Positions 21,999 through 36,476 of a stretch of 55,997 bases of DNA are shown in pieces. The position numbers and the translations under genes were made by a program. The notes under the pieces are model-generated. The model had not been told where the DNA came from, ran no database searches, and worked only from the letters and a program-made list of their open reading frames with translations. This DNA comes from Chloroflexi bacterium TSY (lineage in GTDB: Bacteria; Chloroflexota; Anaerolineae; Caldilineales; Caldilineaceae): contig JAHBNG010000100.1 in NCBI GenBank assembly GCA_019217005.1, positions 1-55,997 on the forward strand. The letters are read 5' to 3'. How positions within the stretch are numbered: position 1 is the first letter of the stretch; each line of letters starts with the position of its first letter.

Positions 21999-22622
21999 AT
22001 GAAACGAACCGCAGATGAAGCAGCAGAGACCCGAAGTGCCATTCTAGATGCCGCGCTCAGCGTATTTGGGCAGAGTGGTTATCATGCTGCCCGCCTGAAA
22101 GATATCTCTGATCAGGCCGGCGTCACGCGGGGAGCCATCTATCACCATTTTGAAAACAAGCTTGGCCTTTATCAGGCACTGCGCGATGCTGCTAACTCGT
22201 TGATTCAGGACAAAATCATTCCGCAGGCGATTGCCGAGGGCGGTCCATTTCTTGATATCTTGGAGCGCATCATCGTACGTACATTGGTTGCGATTGAAGA
22301 AGACAAGCGGTTGCAGAATACCATGCGCCTCGACCTTTCCCAGTCGGATTTCTCGGGTGAGCTAGAGCCTATTGCGGAAATGATACGAGAATCTGCCGTA
22401 ACAGAGGTCAATAACGTTGCATCTTTCTTCGAGATGGCGATCCAACAAGGCGCGATTCGAGCAGACATCGAACCGGCAATTATCGCGCGCGCGTTGTTGG
22501 CGTTTCAAAACGGCATGATTCGGATTTGGCTTGTCAACCCAGACGCGTTCTCGCTCAAGGCGGATGCACCACAGTTGGCAAGGCTGTTTTTGAGCAGTAT
22601 CGCCGTTGAGGGCGGAAAATAA
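21999..22622 (+). CDS. TetR/AcrR family transcriptional regulator
   Basis: 207 residues. The N-terminal TetR helix-turn-helix reads LSVFGQSGYHAARLKDISDQ, then AGVTRGAIYHHFENKLGLY (residues 22-62). The helical C-terminal half should bind the inducer. The perfect 9-bp-arm palindrome ending one base before its start codon indicates autoregulation. A related palindrome before the next gene suggests that the CPBP protease gene is the second target. No ribosome site is possible upstream because the promoter abuts the ATG. Confidence 0.9.
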   Translation: MKRTADEAAETRSAILDAALSVFGQSGYHAARLKDISDQAGVTRGAIYHHFENKLGLYQALRDAANSLIQDKIIPQAIAEGGPFLDILERIIVRTLVAIEEDKRLQNTMRLDLSQSDFSGELEPIAEMIRESAVTEVNNVASFFEMAIQQGAIRADIEPAIIARALLAFQNGMIRIWLVNPDAFSLKADAPQLARLFLSSIAVEGGK

Positions 22623-29886: not shown

Positions 29887-30687
29887 TCATCTCTGCAATA
29901 CCTGTTCGATCACGCTTTGAAATTGTGCAAAAGGAAGTGCCCCCTGAATCGGTTGGCCGTTGATGGCAAATGTGGGTGTACTGCGAACGCCTAACTGCCT
30001 GGAAAACTCGGAGTCTTGTTGCACAACTGTCTCCATACGGCCCGAATCGATGCATTGATCAAACTGCTCGCTATCCAGTCCCAACTCACTGCCGATTCGT
30101 TTTAAGTTTTCAGGATCGAACTGCCGCCAATTCTTGTCTTCAAATAACGCATCGTGATATTCCCAGAACATATCTTGCTCGGCTGCACACTCAGTCGCAG
30201 CTGCAGACCAAGTTGATTCCTGTCCTAGAAACGCAAAATGAACATAACCAAAACGAACCTCACCAGACTCTACATACTGCTCTTCGATCTGACGCCCCGC
30301 GTCAGCAGCGTATTGCTGGCAGTATGGTCACAAAAAATCGCTAAATTCAACAATAACCACAGGCGCATCTGGATTGCCCTTGAAGTGGCGGGTGTTCTGA
30401 ATAATCATCTCCATAATTTCGGCTGAATGATCCGGCGTCGGGGTGATGAGCATTGTCGCAGTATCTTGTGTCTCGTTCCCTTCAGCTACCTCTTCTGCTT
30501 CTCCTCCATTTGCAGTCAAAGCTTCTACTGTTGCGTTGACAGCCGCCTCAACTGTGGCATCGATGTCTGGCTGTAAAGTAGGAGAGAACTCTTCAGCAGC
30601 ACAGCCCGAAATAAAAACAAGACTGGCGAAAAACAGAGCACCAACGTACATTTTCGGTAATCGTAATGGTTGTCTGAAAATGTTCAC
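29887..30687 (-). CDS. DsbA-like lipoprotein, candidate selenoprotein (U-P-Y-C)
   Basis: Read through one in-frame TGA this is a 266-residue exported thiol oxidoreductase. The signal peptide has a lipobox (VFISGC), then an acidic linker, then the DsbA domain: APVVIVEFSDFL-[TGA]-PYCQQYAADAG near residue 120, DMFWEYHDALFEDKNW, and the cis-Pro loop LGVRSTPTFAINGQPI. TGA (30328-30330) replaces exactly the first cysteine of the CPYC motif. The frame is unbroken on both sides, so no indel is involved. A 7-bp stem follows. The start is GTG at 30687. The alternative is a nonsense mutation. Confidence 0.8.
30289..30305 (-). promoter_or_regulatory. Candidate bacterial SECIS hairpin in the DsbA-like gene
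   Basis: In the mRNA, CTGACGC-GGG-GCGTCAG forms a perfect 7-bp stem with a three-G loop, beginning 23 bases after the in-frame UGA. This lies within the range of distances and has the loop guanines expected for bacterial SECIS elements read by SelB. It also lies inside the coding sequence, as bacterial SECIS elements do. Confidence 0.55.
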
Positions 30688-31442: not shown

Positions 31443-32006
31443 CTATTCAGTTACGCTCATAAAGGTCTCAGTATTGCCAGAGTCATCAAATGTCAATACA
31501 TCGAACGGTTGAACCCCATATCCTTCCATCTCCATACCAGGGGAACCAATCGGCATTCCTGGGACGGCCAGACCAGTGACGTCGGGACGCTCTGCAAGCA
31601 ACTGGTGGATGGCGTCTGCTGGAACATGCCCTTCGATTACATATCCATCTACCAACGCTGTGTGGCAGGACTGTGCTTGGGGCAATACGCCGTGCTCTAC
31701 TTTCACAGCGGACAGATCCGAGACATCTTCTGTGTGCACAGTGAATCCAGCGTCGCGCATATGGTCCACCCATTTACTACAACATCCACAAGTGGGTGAT
31801 TTGTAAACGGTCATCACAGGTACGTTCTCAGTGGAGACCACCTCTTCAATGACCTCTTCCTGCACAGCTTTTTCCGTGACGCTCTCTGATTGAGGGTTCG
31901 TCGAAACATTAGCATCTGGCGCAGGAATAGCTGCAGATGCGCATCCACTCATGAGCAGAACCACTAGAAATAACAAGATAGCAAACCGATGTCTGTGTTG
32001 AACCAT
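31443..32006 (-). CDS. DUF411 metal-binding lipoprotein
   Basis: 187 residues. The signal with lipobox (FLVVLLMSGC) starts at ATG 32006, preceded by a GGAGGG site. After a linker comes the DUF411 domain with MTVYKSPTCGCCSKWVDHMR, QSCHTALVDGYVIEGHVPAD and VPGMPIGSPGMEM. The Cys-x-Cys-Cys and Met-rich motifs are typical of this copper- or metal-associated family. The thioredoxin-like start of the domain suits the redox neighbourhood. An IS lies 31 bp upstream and separates it from the selenothioredoxin gene. Confidence 0.85.
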   Translation of the reverse strand: MVQHRHRFAILLFLVVLLMSGCASAAIPAPDANVSTNPQSESVTEKAVQEEVIEEVVSTENVPVMTVYKSPTCGCCSKWVDHMRDAGFTVHTEDVSDLSAVKVEHGVLPQAQSCHTALVDGYVIEGHVPADAIHQLLAERPDVTGLAVPGMPIGSPGMEMEGYGVQPFDVLTFDDSGNTETFMSVTE

Positions 32007-32036
32007 ATGCACCCTCCAATTTTTTCTAAATACAAT

Positions 32037-33513
32037 TGACACCTTATTTTTGCGCAACGGGAAGGGAATTCTATTCGTTGACGCAATAAGAGCCTGATTC
32101 TATTCGATCAAATTCGTCAAAATGCCGAAAAAAGGATAGCCTCAAAGAAATTCATTAGAGATACCCGATCCAAGGAGGCATTCATGGCAATAGAATTCGG
32201 ACTAACGAACGAGATCAGCAATACTCAGTATGCACCATTAGCTGCGTTGCTGGCACACTACCATCAAGAGAAAGTGCTAACTGCGTTGAAGAAGATCGAA
32301 ATACCGGTCAAAACGTATGAATATACACCAGCAAGTAAGTTGGAACAGGTGCTGGTTAGCATATTATGTGGTTGCGCAACGCTGACTGAGTTCAATACAA
32401 AGGTCAGACCAGAAAGACTCCTTGCGAAAATTTATGGGATGGAACAGCTTAGTGAGCAATCAAATATGTCTCGTACATTAGACGCCCTAACTCTAATGAA
32501 TATCGGTAGAGTGCGGTCAGCGAAATCTGCAAGCCTCTAAGCCAAATACACAACCACGATTGGCGAGGGTTCTTGTGGTTAGACTTTGACCTATCCGGAT
32601 TACCATGCGGCAAAAAAGGCACAGAAAAGTCAAAAAAGGCTATTTTAGCGGCAAAAAAACGCAACGGGACGCCAATTGGTCCGTGTAAGTTCGGTTAAAT
32701 ACCATGAAACGGTTTGGTCAGACCTCTATCCAGGGAGTCAGCATACAGCTCCATCGTTTCAGCCAGCCGTGCTTGCCACGGAAAGTTCATTAGAGTTAGA
32801 CGAGAAAAAACGCGAGCGAGTCGTCTGGCGCACCGATGGCGGTGCAGGTAGTGAAGAAAATATTCGGTGGCTGCTCAACCGCAACTATCAATTTATGATG
32901 AAGGGCAACTCCAACCGTCGTGCCCATCTGTGGGCGCAACAGGTGACTCGATGGGATCCTTGCGGTGACGTCTTTCTGGCTGAAATTCCATCCCTATCAA
33001 GTTTAATCGCCCTGTACGCATTTTTCTCAAAAAAGAGTGAAAACGAGCAAATTTGTGTCAGTTACTACATTTCGACCATCAAATTGCCATCCAAGCGTCA
33101 CTTCATTTCATATTATGACAATCGAGGTGCGGCTGAAATCGAACAATTCCGTAATGATAAAATGGGGTTACACTTAGCTTCTCGTCGCAAGACCCTATTT
33201 CTAGCTCAAAAAATCTCTTATCCTTTTGGCTGATTTGGCGCATAATTTGATAGGCCATTTCCATCAGCAAGCTCTCGTGGATACTAGATTTGAACCTTTC
33301 CGGCAGAAACGAATTGTTCGAGATCTATTACAAATACCTGGTTTTCTCTCTTTTCAGAACGGCTCACTTTCACGGATTGACCTGCTAAGTTCACATCCTT
33401 ATTCTCGTGACCTTCTGATTTGCTTGAAATCCTATCTAGAGGCCGATTAGAAACCCCCTCTAGTTGCATGAACGAATAGAATCACGCTCTCGTTGCGCAA
33501 AAATAAGGTGTCA
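32037..33513. mobile_element. Degenerate IS (IS4/IS1380-like) inside the redox gene set
   Basis: The inverted repeats of more than 20 bp are TGACACCTTATTTTTGCGCA at 32037 and its complement ending at 33513, with further matches inward (ATTCTATTCGTT). No target duplication is visible. It sits between the stop of the thioredoxin gene (10 bp away) and the ribosome site of the DUF411 gene, splitting what looks like one operon. Confidence 0.85.
32184..33450 (+). pseudogene. DDE transposase remnant, IS4/IS1380-like
   Basis: At least four collinear pieces: 32184-32540 (MAIEFGLTNEISNTQYAPLA), a middle piece in another frame (WLDFDLSGLPCGKKAQKSQK), 32676-33233 (VVWRTDGGAGSEENIRWLLN, YDNRGAAEIEQFRNDKMGLH) and 33226-33450. 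The pattern YDxRG-x2-E-x2-F-x2-DK-x-GL is the catalytic-glutamate block of DDE_Tnp_1 transposases. It has several frame breaks and is clearly inactive. Confidence 0.75.
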
Positions 33514-33522
33514 CTTCTCATT

Positions 33523-33924
33523 TCATTGCAAATGCTCGCTGATTGCCTCTCTCAGAATATCTTCCTCAAGAACGCCAGACGCAGACCAAAGCTTTTCCCA
33601 CTGCTGGTCAACAATCACATAGCTGGGATGACCACGTAGGCTGTATTCTCGTAACAGAGTCTTTCCGGGTTCGGCGTTGGCGTCTAACCTATCAAATGCC
33701 AGCCTGTCACCATACTCTTCTTCGAACCCATTCACGATGGGCTGCATTTCTGCTCAAGGTGGTCAATTGTCCGTAAAAAAGAGAAGAAAGGTATTCTGTC
33801 CCTTATCTGCCCCAGCTGGAGGTGGCATAGCTGACTGATCATCTGTGCAGGCCACCAGAAAGAGCGTGCCAAACAATAGGAAAACATAAAGAATCGCAAA
33901 ACTCGTCATATTCATCCATCTCAT
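33523..33924 (-). CDS. Thioredoxin-like lipoprotein, candidate selenoprotein (U-P-P-U)
   Basis: Read through two in-frame TGA codons this is a 133-residue exported thioredoxin. It begins MRWMNMTSFAILYVFLLFGT with a lipobox FLVACT near residue 28. The core is NTFLLFFTDN-[TGA]-P-P-[TGA]-AEMQPIVNGFEEEYG, then RLDANAEPGKTLLREYSLRG, HPSYVIVD (cis-Pro) and a C-terminal helix. TGA codons at 33763-33765 and 33754-33756 stand exactly where the two CxxC cysteines belong. The frame is intact throughout. The start overlaps the cytochrome c stop (ATGA), so the gene is translationally coupled. The alternative, two independent nonsense mutations 9 bp apart at those codons, is much less likely. Confidence 0.82.
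33725..33743 (-). promoter_or_regulatory. Candidate bacterial SECIS hairpin in the thioredoxin gene
   Basis: In the mRNA, AGCCCAT-CGTGA-ATGGGTT forms a 7-bp stem (one G-U pair) with a five-base loop containing G. It begins 10 bases after the second UGA and 19 after the first. Position and loop are compatible with a bacterial SECIS serving both UGA codons. Confidence 0.45.
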
Positions 33925-34340
33925 TGTTGGGCCTCATATTGGTCTGTGATTTGTTCTTGAAAGTCGCGTGGGCGTTTGTCCCAGAATGTCTTAATGTAAG
34001 CCAAAGTTGCTTCCATCTCCTCCTGTGTGAGTTCTCCTTCATAGGCAGGCATCGGGCTATTCGGCACGCCACTTCTCTGGGCAATCATCTGCAAAAGCAT
34101 CTGATCCGGGTGGTGCCATGTATGGCCTGTGCTGTCATGGGGCGGTGCAGGCAGCTTGCCGTCCTGACCCGGCTGTCTCCAATTTGGCTGTCCCTCTCCC
34201 TGCATACCATGACACGATGCACAATTGGCTTCATAGACAGTCTGCCCCAATGCTAAATCCACTGGCGGGCTCTGCTCAACCGGGACACAAGCAATCAGCA
34301 ACAACATGATCAGGAACAACATCCTACTAGGATGAATCAT
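33921..34340 (-). CDS. Cytochrome c lipoprotein (class I, one haem)
   Basis: About 139 residues. The signal with lipobox MIHPSRMLFLIMLLLIAC starts at ATG 34340. The haem motif CASCH is in LGQTVYEANCASCHGMQGEG, and the likely axial methionine is in NSPMPAYEGELTQEEMEATL, as in cbb3/cytochrome c551-like domains. The start overlaps the methyltransferase stop by 14 bp, and the stop overlaps the next start as ATGA. It probably passes electrons at the outer face of the membrane, and co-expression with CcmE would make sense. Confidence 0.88.
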   Translation of the reverse strand: MIHPSRMLFLIMLLLIACVPVEQSPPVDLALGQTVYEANCASCHGMQGEGQPNWRQPGQDGKLPAPPHDSTGHTWHHPDQMLLQMIAQRSGVPNSPMPAYEGELTQEEMEATLAYIKTFWDKRPRDFQEQITDQYEAQQ

Positions 34341-35115
34341 TCGTGACCGCAACGAACGCATAAAGATAGTGTCCAAGTCGTTCATGGGAGTACATCATAT
34401 GCTTGAGATGAAAATGAGCTTTGTCAAAGAGATGGGGATAGTTGTGGGAAAAGGCGAATTCCCGCCCATAGGGTTTCGAGTCCAATTCAGTCGCCAAATT
34501 ATGATCAACTGCCACAGGTTCAATGGCAATAAAGATCGCGGGTGCAAGAGTCTGACCGATATGATTGAGGAGCAGTTCAAGATTCTCCTGCGAAAAATAC
34601 TCCAGCACGCCACCATGTGTGAGATAGATCCAGTTTGGTTGCCCATGCGCTTCAACCCACTCCAGACCACCAGCTGCTACAAATTCAAGTTTGGGATTGG
34701 AATAGGTTTGCTGATTGGTTTTGGTCGTCTCTTCGCTCAGATCAATACCAATACACCGCTCGATTGCAGGAACATTTGCAGCTAGGTAATCGAGTAGCTG
34801 TCCCGAACCAGAACCAATTTCACACAATGTGGTATAGCCTGGTTCTGTCTGGACGAGTGCATTGATCTCATCCACGAGATAGGCATAGTGACGCAGAAAA
34901 ATTTCCTCAAATCGATTCTGTCGCTCGCTGTGGTATTGATGCCCACGCTCGCCTTGCCAAAAGTCGTAGTGATATTGTTCTAATGTAGTGGACTGTCCTT
35001 TGGCCAATGCCTGTTCGATCAGGCCTGCGCGGAGCAGTGAATCAAGCCAGTTGCGCTTCTGTCCCGAGGTAAAGCTAAATTCGTCGCGCTTGATGCTTTC
35101 TGCTCTAGCTGGCAT
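34327..35115 (-). CDS. SAM-dependent methyltransferase
   Basis: About 262 residues. The SAM-binding core is TTLCEIGSGSGQLLDYLAAN followed by CIGIDLSEETTKTNQ. A 90-residue N-terminal region contains YDFWQGERGHQYHSERQNRF. It looks like a type-12/25 class I methyltransferase. ATG at 35115 is chosen over a TTG at 35124. It is the first gene of the redox set and overlaps the cytochrome gene. The substrate is unknown, and a role tied to selenium or thiol chemistry would be speculation. Confidence 0.75.
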   Translation of the reverse strand: MPARAESIKRDEFSFTSGQKRNWLDSLLRAGLIEQALAKGQSTTLEQYHYDFWQGERGHQYHSERQNRFEEIFLRHYAYLVDEINALVQTEPGYTTLCEIGSGSGQLLDYLAANVPAIERCIGIDLSEETTKTNQQTYSNPKLEFVAAGGLEWVEAHGQPNWIYLTHGGVLEYFSQENLELLLNHIGQTLAPAIFIAIEPVAVDHNLATELDSKPYGREFAFSHNYPHLFDKAHFHLKHMMYSHERLGHYLYAFVAVTNDSS

Positions 35116-35215: not shown

Positions 35216-36253
35216 TTGGCTCATATATGAAAGTAGGTGAAAAGTATGTAAAATAGGGAAAGAGGTCAATGAGAAAAAAGAAAAGAGAAAAAGAGCCATG
35301 AAAATGCGATATCCGATCCAAGAACTGATGAGCGAAGAAGGCTGTTATGAGAGATTGTTAGAGATCTTGCATCCAGAAGGGATGCAATGTCCAGATGGAC
35401 ATAGATTGCCAGAAGGGCAAGCGCCTCACAGTCGAGAGCGAGCCCCGGTGAATAAGTACAGATGCCGAGAATGCGGCAAAGTATACGATGCCTTTACGAA
35501 TACAGTCTGGTCTGGAACGCATTACAATTGTGTGACGATAGTCTTAGTGATGCGAGGCATCATTCAAGGGACACCAACGCTGCATCTATCAGAGGAACTG
35601 TCTCTGAACTATAGTACGTTGTTGGAGCGTCGCCATCGGATCCAGAATACGGCGTTGCTCCAAGCCGCAGCCGCTTCCCCCTTTTTCGCGATTCTGTAGC
35701 TGAAGCCGATGAACTGTACCAGAATGCAGGAGAGAAAGGCGATTACCATCCCGATCCAGATGACCCGCCCAGACCTCGAGCCAACAAGCGCCGTGGACGA
35801 GGGACGATGGAGAACGACCGACCACCGATTCTGGGCGTTGTGGGACGAACCTCTGGCCAAGTCCAGTTCACGGTCTGTGACAACACACAACAAGCAACCA
35901 TTGTTCCTTTAGTTGTTGCTTGCTCTCCCTGGCACCACTCTCTATACCGACGAGTGCAACGCCTACAATCCCATTGTGGAGACTGGTCGCTCTCATGCCA
36001 CTGTTTGTCACTCCCGGTACGAATGGGCTCGCGATGATGATGGCGACGGCATTCGGGAAGTTCACTGCAACACCATGGAAGGCATTTGGACTGGTCTACG
36101 CAATTTTCTGCGTCCCTTTCGGGGTGTTCATAAACGTTATCTTGCCCAATATGTTGCCATCTTTGAATGGACTCACAATCTCAAATTCGTCAATGACTCC
36201 TTTCTTCGCTCTCTCATTGACTCCCATTTCACCTATTTTCATTCATGAGCCAA
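35216..36253. mobile_element. ISXO2/IS1595-like insertion sequence
   Basis: The ends share TTGGCTCAT then ATGAAA(G/A)TAGGTGAAA in inverted orientation (left from 35216, right ending 36253), with A/T runs that blur the exact edges. It carries one plus-strand transposase in broken frame. It lies just upstream of the redox gene set and may have displaced its promoter. Confidence 0.75.
35298..36248 (+). pseudogene. ISXO2-like (IS1595 family) transposase, frame-broken
   Basis: The N-terminal zinc ribbon (MQCPDGHRLP...YRCRECGKVYDAFTNTVWSG) at 35298-35699 is followed by a part in another frame, VAEADELYQNAGEKG and RPPILGVVGRTSGQVQFTVC, to about 35920. It then returns to the first frame with GTTLYTDECNAYNPIVETGR and HCNTMEGIWTGLRNFLRPFR. 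The breaks are near a C5T5 run at 35680 and a run at 35920. The DDE-like order with NTMEGIW...LRPFRGVHKRYL fits ISXO2-like transposases. Confidence 0.85.
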
Positions 36254-36476
36254 AAAATTTTTGACTACTTCTTTCATAGCAAACAAACATCCTCATTACG
36301 ACAGATTTTCGTAAAAGAACGACAATCATAAGAACAACAATTAAATAGAGTGGCTGTCTCATCTCTATAATGCACCAGCTAGATAAATCTGAATCTAAAG
36401 TCAGTATAAAAAAATCAGGTATCGAATTTCAAGTTATCTGTCAATCGCCTCCAAATCGGGTCCACAAGACCCGAAA

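What the first reader, a model, noticed from the sequence alone, without database searches (positions are those of the whole stretch)
33523..33924. Thioredoxin lipoprotein with both active-site cysteines encoded by TGA (U-P-P-U)
The ORF from 33924 is uninterrupted except for two TGA codons, nine bases apart, at exactly the two positions of the thioredoxin CxxC motif: ...FFTDN-TGA-CCA-CCT-TGA-AEMQPIV... Signal peptide, lipobox, cis-Pro loop (GHPSYVIV) and C-terminal helix are all in one frame, and the start is coupled to the upstream gene by ATGA. UxxU is known from SelL-type proteins. A short exported thioredoxin lipoprotein with U-P-P-U may be undescribed. Ordinary TGA stops elsewhere in the window rule out a general code change.
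Basis: partly seen in the sequence, partly recalled or inferred. Interest (0 to 1): 0.95.

Follow-up and report, generated by a model that had tools for sequence, protein, structure and literature searches.

The report
Thioredoxin lipoprotein with two selenocysteines
This bacterial gene encodes a thioredoxin-like protein, predicted to be anchored outside the cell membrane, in which both active-site codons are UGA and are likely read as selenocysteine with the help of one conserved, predicted RNA hairpin; the same layout recurs in dozens of related genomes, and the closest entries found in protein databases hold only its second half.

Summary
A lipoprotein-thioredoxin frame at 33924..33523 (-) is broken only by TGA at both CxxC positions (UPPU). 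It is no isolated error: 56 distinct loci (the window and 55 from 51 genomes) carry TGA at exactly both positions. The first protein search returned 20 hits, all 74-78 aa fragments beginning at the Met after TGA2. Twelve bases after TGA2 lies a hairpin with compensatory changes (27 two-sided cells against 5.8 shuffled, 0/500), loop CGUG in 70 of 70 Sec rows, and codons fixed beyond protein need (loop Val GTG 70/70 against 33% elsewhere). Its loop is 17 nt from UGA2 and 26 nt from UGA1, both within the published SECIS range, so one SECIS probably serves two UGAs. Single-Sec (UxxC) kin share it; 3 of 4 CxxC kin lost it. The window holds a second likely selenoprotein gene (UPYC). Neighbours (cytochrome c, DsbA, copper ATPase) suggest an outside-facing redox role (inferred). 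UxxU is known in other families, but a 2026 catalogue lists PF00085 only as UxxC. Against: one single-contig genome has the gene without detected Sec machinery; the window hairpin is weak.

The parts
33523..33924 (-). UxxU thioredoxin lipoprotein gene, 133 aa when TGA is read as Sec
33847..33924 (-). predicted signal peptide with lipobox LVAC ending at Cys26 (judged by a loose regular expression and by eye)
   Evidence: 55 of 56 UxxU rows match the expression; Cys26 invariant in 40 of 40 aligned rows
33763..33765 (-). TGA 1, residue 54, first Sec of U-P-P-U
33754..33756 (-). TGA 2, residue 57, second Sec
33725..33743 (-). SECIS-like hairpin AGCCCAU-CGUGA-AUGGGUU; core stem 33741-33737 with 33731-33727, loop 33736-33732
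33921..34385 (-). cytochrome c gene (CASCH), overlaps the UxxU start by ATGA
29887..30687 (-). second likely selenoprotein gene: DsbA/DsbG-like lipoprotein, U-P-Y-C, close to NF041057
   Evidence: (175.3 bits, cut-off 190)
30328..30330 (-). in-frame TGA of the DsbA-like gene
30289..30305 (-). its SECIS candidate CUGACGC-GGG-GCGUCAG
   Evidence: (z -2.27 for the 76-nt stretch)
31443..32057 (-). DUF411 protein (CGCC motif), same strand

Best explanation
The gene encodes a thioredoxin-like protein, predicted to be a membrane-anchored lipoprotein facing outward, whose two active-site codons are both UGA and are likely both decoded as selenocysteine by SelB and tRNA-Sec guided by one conserved predicted hairpin 12 bases after the second UGA. 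The hairpin loop lies 26 nt from UGA1 and 17 nt from UGA2, so the same element would be used twice in succession as the ribosome moves three codons. The Sec pair would cycle between selenols and a diselenide (or react with partner thiols). From its neighbours I infer that it reduces or exchanges disulfides in an outside-facing cytochrome c / copper / DsbA redox module. Shown: both TGAs, their conservation, the hairpin's covariation and codon constraint, Sec genes in most relatives. Inferred: Sec insertion itself, use of one hairpin for both codons, the diselenide, membrane anchoring and the physiological role.
For: Both TGAs in 56 distinct loci at exactly the CxxC positions; 14 UxxC, 4 CxxC, 0 CxxU (I mostly fetched rows flagged 2 TGA, so these are not frequencies). 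Exact pattern TGA-N6-TGA-N12-CCCATCGTGNATGGG in 39 of 396 class genomes by my count of the zero-mismatch rows; 74 of 396 with up to one mismatch, many of those UxxC; reversed-pattern control 0. Hairpin: all five core pairs standard in 51 of 56 UxxU, 12 of 14 UxxC, 1 of 4 CxxC; 27 two-sided changes against 5.8 shuffled, 0/500; pairing 90.7% against at most 47.2% in slid controls. Codon fixation: loop Val GTG 70/70 (GTG 33% elsewhere in the same genes), Ile ATC 60/60 (47%), Gly GGG 54/55 (21%), Asp GAT 22/22 (49%). Spacing and loop fit the published bSECIS model. Of 51 UxxU genomes, 41 have selB over cut-off and 7 more have selA and/or tRNA-Sec; 0 of 4 CxxC genomes have selA or selB over cut-off. 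A second TGA-containing redox gene with a SECIS candidate lies in the window. Thioredoxin fold. Neighbours: cytochrome c 16, Thioredoxin_4 (DsbA type) 10, E1-E2 ATPase 8, HMA 8 of 124 same-strand ORFs, against E1-E2 ATPase 1 and none of the others among the 25 families listed for 82 opposite-strand ORFs.
Against: G334, a single 5.63-Mb contig, carries the UxxU gene with intact hairpin, but no selA, selB, selD or tRNA-Sec over cut-off was found; G007 likewise has none of the four; G323 has only a 77.7-bit selB piece at a contig edge. selB is common in the class anyway (314 of 396, 79%), so 41 of 51 (80%) is no enrichment. Two of the four CxxC genomes (G014, G166) have tRNA-Sec matches just over the cut-off (52 and 48.6 bits). 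RNAalifold with default settings predicts no structure on all 70 rows or on the 56 UxxU rows, and finds the hairpin only on subsets or with other settings. One of five covariation measures, further pair types, does not beat the shuffles (297/500), and the +1 slide equals it there. 13 of 56 UxxU hairpins are weaker than -7.5 kcal/mol; the window is at -7.5 in a 21-nt fold and -7.0 in 19 nt, and my strict SECIS script rejected it for both UGAs. Energy z-scores of four single family sequences are unremarkable (-0.1 to -1.4). Neighbour ORFs are not independent (four of the downstream ORFs are 76-91% identical to one of the ATPases). The window's own genome is not held.
Confidence: 0.9

Rival explanations
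1. The TGAs are true stops: the gene is a decaying pseudogene, or a short secreted peptide plus a 74-aa protein started at Met60, as the database entries have it.
For: Database hits begin right after TGA2. G334 and G007 have no detected Sec machinery.
Against: Both TGAs hold in 56 divergent loci; signal peptide and first strand are kept ahead of them; covarying hairpin; CxxC kin are open through the same positions.
Confidence: 0.03
2. Only UGA1 is reliably read as Sec. UGA2 is read inefficiently or by another amino acid, so the working form is UxxX or a mixture with truncated product.
For: UxxC kin show that the hairpin at this distance goes with UGA1 alone. The UGA2-to-loop distance of 17 nt is near the lower limit of 16.
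Against: Codon 57 is TGA in 56 loci although a Cys codon is one base away; 17 nt still lies within the published range.
Confidence: 0.07
3. A selenoprotein with two Sec, but each UGA uses its own overlapping recoding element rather than one shared hairpin.
For: The bacterial SECIS is described as following a Sec-UGA directly. At least one row can form a larger alternative fold (L001).
Against: I found only one conserved helix; UxxC and UxxU rows share the same hairpin at the same place. I did not test other helices systematically.
Confidence: 0.08
4. Same protein, different job: an antioxidant directed at peroxides or oxidised methionine, not a cytochrome c or copper maturation partner.
For: A review notes that almost all selenoproteins of known function play roles in antioxidant defence (PMC9312934, passage). 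The neighbour families found cover only part of the 124 ORFs.
Against: No peroxiredoxin domain in the window protein at E<=0.01; neighbour enrichment for cytochrome c, DsbA-type and copper proteins.
Confidence: 0.35

Closest known systems
SelL / Prx-like UxxU selenoproteins (PF00578; GOS 'Prx-like 2')
   Same: UxxU redox motif in a thioredoxin-like fold; SelL is reported to hold a diselenide (PMC2397514, passage); GOS UxxU sequences (PMC2398784, passage)
   Different: Peroxiredoxin-like domain, and the GOS set has low similarity to pfam04592; here PF00085, lipoprotein signal, no PF00578 match in the window protein at E<=0.01
Thioredoxin selenoprotein, PF00085 UxxC (2026 catalogue, PMC13188914)
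   Same: PF00085 domain, Sec at the first active-site position
   Different: Catalogue lists one Sec, UxxC only; here two Sec and a lipobox
NF041057 Rcas_1661 family thioredoxin-like (seleno)lipoprotein
   Same: Trx-like selenolipoprotein; the window's second TGA-containing gene is close to it
   Different: DsbG-like, UxxC; only 1 of 12 members of the UxxU/UxxC set hits it, E 3.3e-5
NF047660 HUIPC-motif thioredoxin-like selenoprotein; NF041115 UxxU metal-binding protein
   Same: Trx-like with Sec, or UxxU motif, respectively
   Different: HUIPC is listed with one Sec and is hit by 3 of 12 members (best E 1.5e-5), not by the window protein; NF041115 is not among the 25 of 27 families listed

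Membership tests
Thioredoxin family (PF00085) | Pfam match over gathering score with TGA read as Cys | tested here: met
   26 bits, cut-off 23.5; 12 of 12 members match at E<=0.01
Thioredoxin family (PF00085) | Thioredoxin fold, active site at the start of a helix, conserved Pro of the cis-Pro loop | tested here: met
   AF2 pLDDT 92.9; best Foldseek matches are thioredoxins; helix 55-71 begins in the UxxU motif; Pro100 invariant in 40 of 40. Whether Pro100 is cis was not checked
Bacterial selenoprotein gene | In-frame UGA at a Cys position of homologues | tested here: met
   CxxC homologues L043, L050, L054, L056
Bacterial selenoprotein gene | bSECIS loop, stem and spacing: loop 3-9 nt, stem 4-16 bp, G in the first two loop bases, 16-37 nt from UGA | tested here: met
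   Loop CGUGA, 5-7 bp, 17 and 26 nt
Bacterial selenoprotein gene | bSECIS energy of -7.5 kcal/mol or lower | tested here: inconclusive
   Window -7.5 in a 21-nt fold, -7.0 in 19 nt, rejected by my strict script; 43 of 56 UxxU rows meet the limit
Bacterial selenoprotein gene | selA, selB, selC, selD in the organism | not testable with these tools
   No genome held for the window; in relatives 48 of 51 have at least one of selA, selB or tRNA-Sec over cut-off
Bacterial selenoprotein gene | Se in the protein | not testable with these tools
   needs 75Se or mass spectrometry
SelL / Prx-like UxxU | Peroxiredoxin-type domain (PF00578) | tested here: not met
   Window protein has no PF00578 match at E<=0.01; 4 of 12 members match, best E 2.7e-6, against 1.2e-15 for PF00085
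SelL / Prx-like UxxU | UxxU motif | tested here: met
NF041057 Rcas_1661 (seleno)lipoprotein, for the second gene 30687..29887 | score over curated cut-off | tested here: not met
   175.3 bits, cut-off 190: near member

The most novel reading that the evidence does not exclude
A widespread family of exported thioredoxins in one Chloroflexota class runs on a diselenide, and a single standardised in-frame SECIS hairpin (mostly CCCAU-CGUGN-AUGGG) drives two successive selenocysteine insertions three codons apart; the hairpin has frozen the codons of the thioredoxin helix (PIVNG) across the family, so the RNA signal has shaped the protein.
Probability: 0.75. Interest if true: 0.85.

Novelty: new variant of a known kind. 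Interest (0 to 1): 0.8.

Why it matters
It would add a two-Sec thioredoxin family, found in at least 39 of 396 genomes of one bacterial class and cut short in the closest database entries found, to a catalogue of 119 families and subfamilies of which only a small subset holds more than one Sec. It offers a natural test of how one SECIS can recode two closely spaced UGAs, which bears on SelB release and rebinding and on making diselenide proteins in bacteria. It also points to a use for diselenide chemistry at the cell surface next to cytochromes and copper proteins.

Tried and rejected
Viral contigs: 12 pattern matches, none a relative. Plasmids: one distant thioredoxin match, 30% identity, in Runella. 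No Rfam family over gathering score and no tRNA in the window. RNAalifold default on all 70 rows gave no structure; kept as a result against, followed up. selB presence as a statistical test was dropped as weak because the base rate is 79%. tRNA-Sec hits of 48-52 bits in G014, G296, G084 and G166 are over the cut-off of 47 but below the 66-75 bits of the clear ones; I treat them as doubtful. A scan for more TGA-containing genes in the window (30+ codons before, 50+ after, strict SECIS) gave two candidates, the DsbA-like gene and one at 22507 without a redox motif; the scan by design cannot see UxxU pairs, and its SECIS test rejected the finding's own hairpin on energy.

Papers. PMC13188914: outline, section 5, part 1 of 3 of section 7, passages. 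Other papers were seen as search listings only. The SelL original (PubMed 17715293) is not held. A search on CopG/DUF411/copper gave none; one on SECIS with 'two UGA' nothing relevant.

Rows dropped before counts: neighbour ORFs were given to Pfam as 58 of 59 upstream, 66 of 79 downstream and 82 of 86 opposite-strand. Each Pfam table shows only the 25 commonest families, so an unlisted family may still have one member. The 56/14/4 split comes from 82 loci, 8 of them repeats, fetched mostly because they were flagged 2 TGA; the listing was itself cut.

Full report
Observation. The minus-strand frame 33924..33523 is open except for two TGA codons at 33765-33763 and 33756-33754, exactly the positions of a thioredoxin CxxC. 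With TGA read as Cys the protein matches PF00085 over its gathering score. It has a lipoprotein-type signal and overlaps the stop of a cytochrome c gene by ATGA.

Relatives in protein databases. A search of about 5.8 billion proteins returned 20 hits, one of them the window's own. All 20 are 74-78 aa and all begin, in the alignment, at the Met three residues after TGA2. The search admits only proteins of at least about 74 aa, so shorter fragments were invisible.

Relatives in genomes. Genome contigs gave 11 loci titled Caldilineaceae, Anaerolineaceae or Anaerolineae: 8 of 11 UxxU, 3 of 11 UxxC, 0 CxxC. A read-through search of 396 genomes of the class of G002 (a Caldilineaceae MAG) gave many more with two TGAs (list cut). 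After fetching, 82 loci gave 74 distinct motif sequences: UxxU 56 (window included), UxxC 14, CxxC 4, CxxU 0. I mostly chose rows flagged 2 TGA, so these are not frequencies. A pattern for both TGAs plus the hairpin, with up to one mismatch, hit 74 of 396 genomes and its reversed control none; by my reading 39 genomes match exactly, the rest being one-base variants, many of them TGA-N6-TGC with the same hairpin.

Tree. 74 rows, 130 columns kept. UxxU rows fall in a group of 46 and one of 8, plus L088 and L085; L085 (UPTU) sits inside the UxxC group, a separate gain or a retained state. The four CxxC rows lie within the UxxC group, compatible with Sec-to-Cys changes there. The root is at the midpoint, so directions are not shown; few columns and long branches limit this.

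Hairpin. Twelve bases after codon 57 comes a five-pair stem, usually CCCAT/ATGGG, with loop CGTG(A/G/C). Variants change both sides: CCCGT/ACGGG, CCTGT/ACAGG, CTCGT/ACGAG, CCTAC/GTAGG, CCTAT/ATAGG. All five pairs are standard in 51 of 56 UxxU, 12 of 14 UxxC and 1 of 4 CxxC rows; the loop begins CGTG in 70 of 70 Sec rows. Over seven pairs and 69 distinct rows, 27 cells change on both sides against 5.8 in shuffles (0 of 500); pairs with a two-sided change 5 against 2.7 (6 of 500); further pair types do not beat the shuffles (297 of 500). Slid controls pair 12.6-47.2% of cells against 90.7%; the +1 slide has 16 two-sided cells. Relatedness inflates such numbers, as the tool warns. RNAalifold with default settings found nothing on 70 rows or on the 56 UxxU rows, but finds this hairpin on the 14 UxxC rows, the first 12 rows, the 63 rows without a core mismatch, and on all rows with RIBOSUM scoring or a lower mismatch penalty. 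Codons inside the hairpin are fixed beyond what the protein needs: the loop Val is GTG 70/70 against 33% GTG elsewhere in the same genes, Ile ATC 60/60 against 47%, Gly GGG 54/55 against 21%, Asp GAT 22/22 against 49%, Pro CCC 58/69 against 31%; Asn is AAT in 32 of 40 against 44%. The one CxxC row that keeps the hairpin (L043) is sister to a UxxC row, as expected of a recent Sec loss.

SECIS model. A 2026 review (PMC13188914; section 5, part 1 of 3 of section 7, and passages seen) gives loop 3-9 nt, stem 4-16 bp, a G in the first two loop bases, 16-37 nt from UGA, and -7.5 kcal/mol or lower. Here the loop is 17 nt from UGA2 and 26 nt from UGA1, with G second. The window hairpin is at the energy limit (-7.5 in 21 nt, -7.0 in 19 nt), my strict script rejected it, and 13 of 56 UxxU rows are weaker than -7.5. 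By position one element fits both codons.

Machinery. Of the 11 first genomes 9 have tRNA-Sec and 9 have selB over cut-off. In the class 314 of 396 have selB. Of the 51 genomes holding the 55 UxxU loci, 41 have selB over cut-off; G001, G163, G199, G200, G217 and G286 have selA, G320 has tRNA-Sec; G323 has only a selB piece at a contig edge; G007 and G334 have no selA, selB or tRNA-Sec over cut-off. G334 is one contig of 5,631,885 bases; it and G007 also lack a selD over cut-off. This is unexplained: recent loss, or a detection or assembly problem. The four CxxC genomes lack selA and selB; two of them have doubtful tRNA-Sec matches. The window's own genome is not held.

Second gene in the window. 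Frame 30687..29887 (-) has one TGA at 30330-30328 in ...FSDFL-U-PYC..., with a DsbA/DsbG-like domain, 175.3 bits to NF041057, a known (seleno)lipoprotein family (cut-off 190), and a SECIS candidate CUGACGC-GGG-GCGUCAG. This supports Sec use in the window's organism independently of the finding.

Fold. AlphaFold2 on 40 aligned rows: pLDDT 92.9, pTM 0.77. Foldseek's best matches are thioredoxins; the profile hits thioredoxins and disulfide isomerases in the PDB by sequence.

Neighbours and role. 55 loci were examined, 53 with same-strand ORFs in range. Of the ORFs scanned, 58 upstream hold cytochrome c 9, cupredoxin 4, E1-E2 ATPase 3, HMA 3, DUF3105 3; 66 downstream hold Thioredoxin_4 10 and DSBA 9 (overlapping sets), cytochrome c 7, E1-E2 ATPase 5, HMA 5, DUF3105 5, DUF411 2. 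82 opposite-strand ORFs: E1-E2 ATPase 1, the others not among the 25 of 54 families listed. Some neighbours are near-copies of each other. In the window the order is cytochrome c, UxxU thioredoxin, an inserted repeat-bounded element, DUF411, DUF2085, DsbA-U. I infer an outside-facing thiol/selenol redox module tied to cytochromes and copper. That DUF411 resembles copper protein CopG is recalled and came from no call (one search empty).

What is known. UxxU exists in SelL (reported to hold a diselenide; PMC2397514, passage; original paper not held), in Prx-like proteins of the GOS set (PMC2398784, passage), in a mercuric-reductase-like family and in FmdB (PMC13188914, table passages), and in two SELENOW proteins of eukaryotes (PMC7539508, passage). 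The catalogue's PF00085 entry is UxxC with one Sec; 'UxxU' occurs three times in it, none for PF00085, and the words lipoprotein, diselenide and any beginning with Chloroflex or Anaerolin do not occur. Literature searches: open-access papers only. No NCBIfam model reaches its cut-off for the window protein. I therefore call it a new variant of a known kind.

Noticed in passing
29887..30687 (-): Second in-frame TGA gene: DsbA/DsbG-like lipoprotein with UPYC and its own SECIS candidate; the table-11 ORF list splits it in two.
   Followed up: partly
32034-32106 and 33444-33516: 73-nt inverted repeats, 79% complementary, bracket an element of about 1.5 kb between the UxxU gene and DUF411; looks like an insertion element with broken ORFs.
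   Followed up: partly
35298..36264 (+): ORFs that look like pieces of a zinc-ribbon transposase (recalled likeness to the IS1595/ISXO2 type; no Pfam hit for 35298..35699).
   Followed up: no
G334:C1 (L048, L108): Single-contig genome with UxxU gene and intact hairpin but no selA, selB, selD or tRNA-Sec over cut-off.
   Followed up: partly
rows with TGA-N6-TGC: The same near-identical hairpin CCCATCGTGNATGGG follows UxxC-type codons in many other places of the class, as if one standard SECIS cassette were shared by several thioredoxin-like selenoproteins.
   Followed up: partly
L144, L145 (G238, G358): selD of these genomes itself carries one in-frame TGA; the 2026 catalogue lists Sec-containing SelD.
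   Followed up: no
L085: UPTU motif inside the UxxC group: a separate gain of the second Sec or a retained state.
   Followed up: partly
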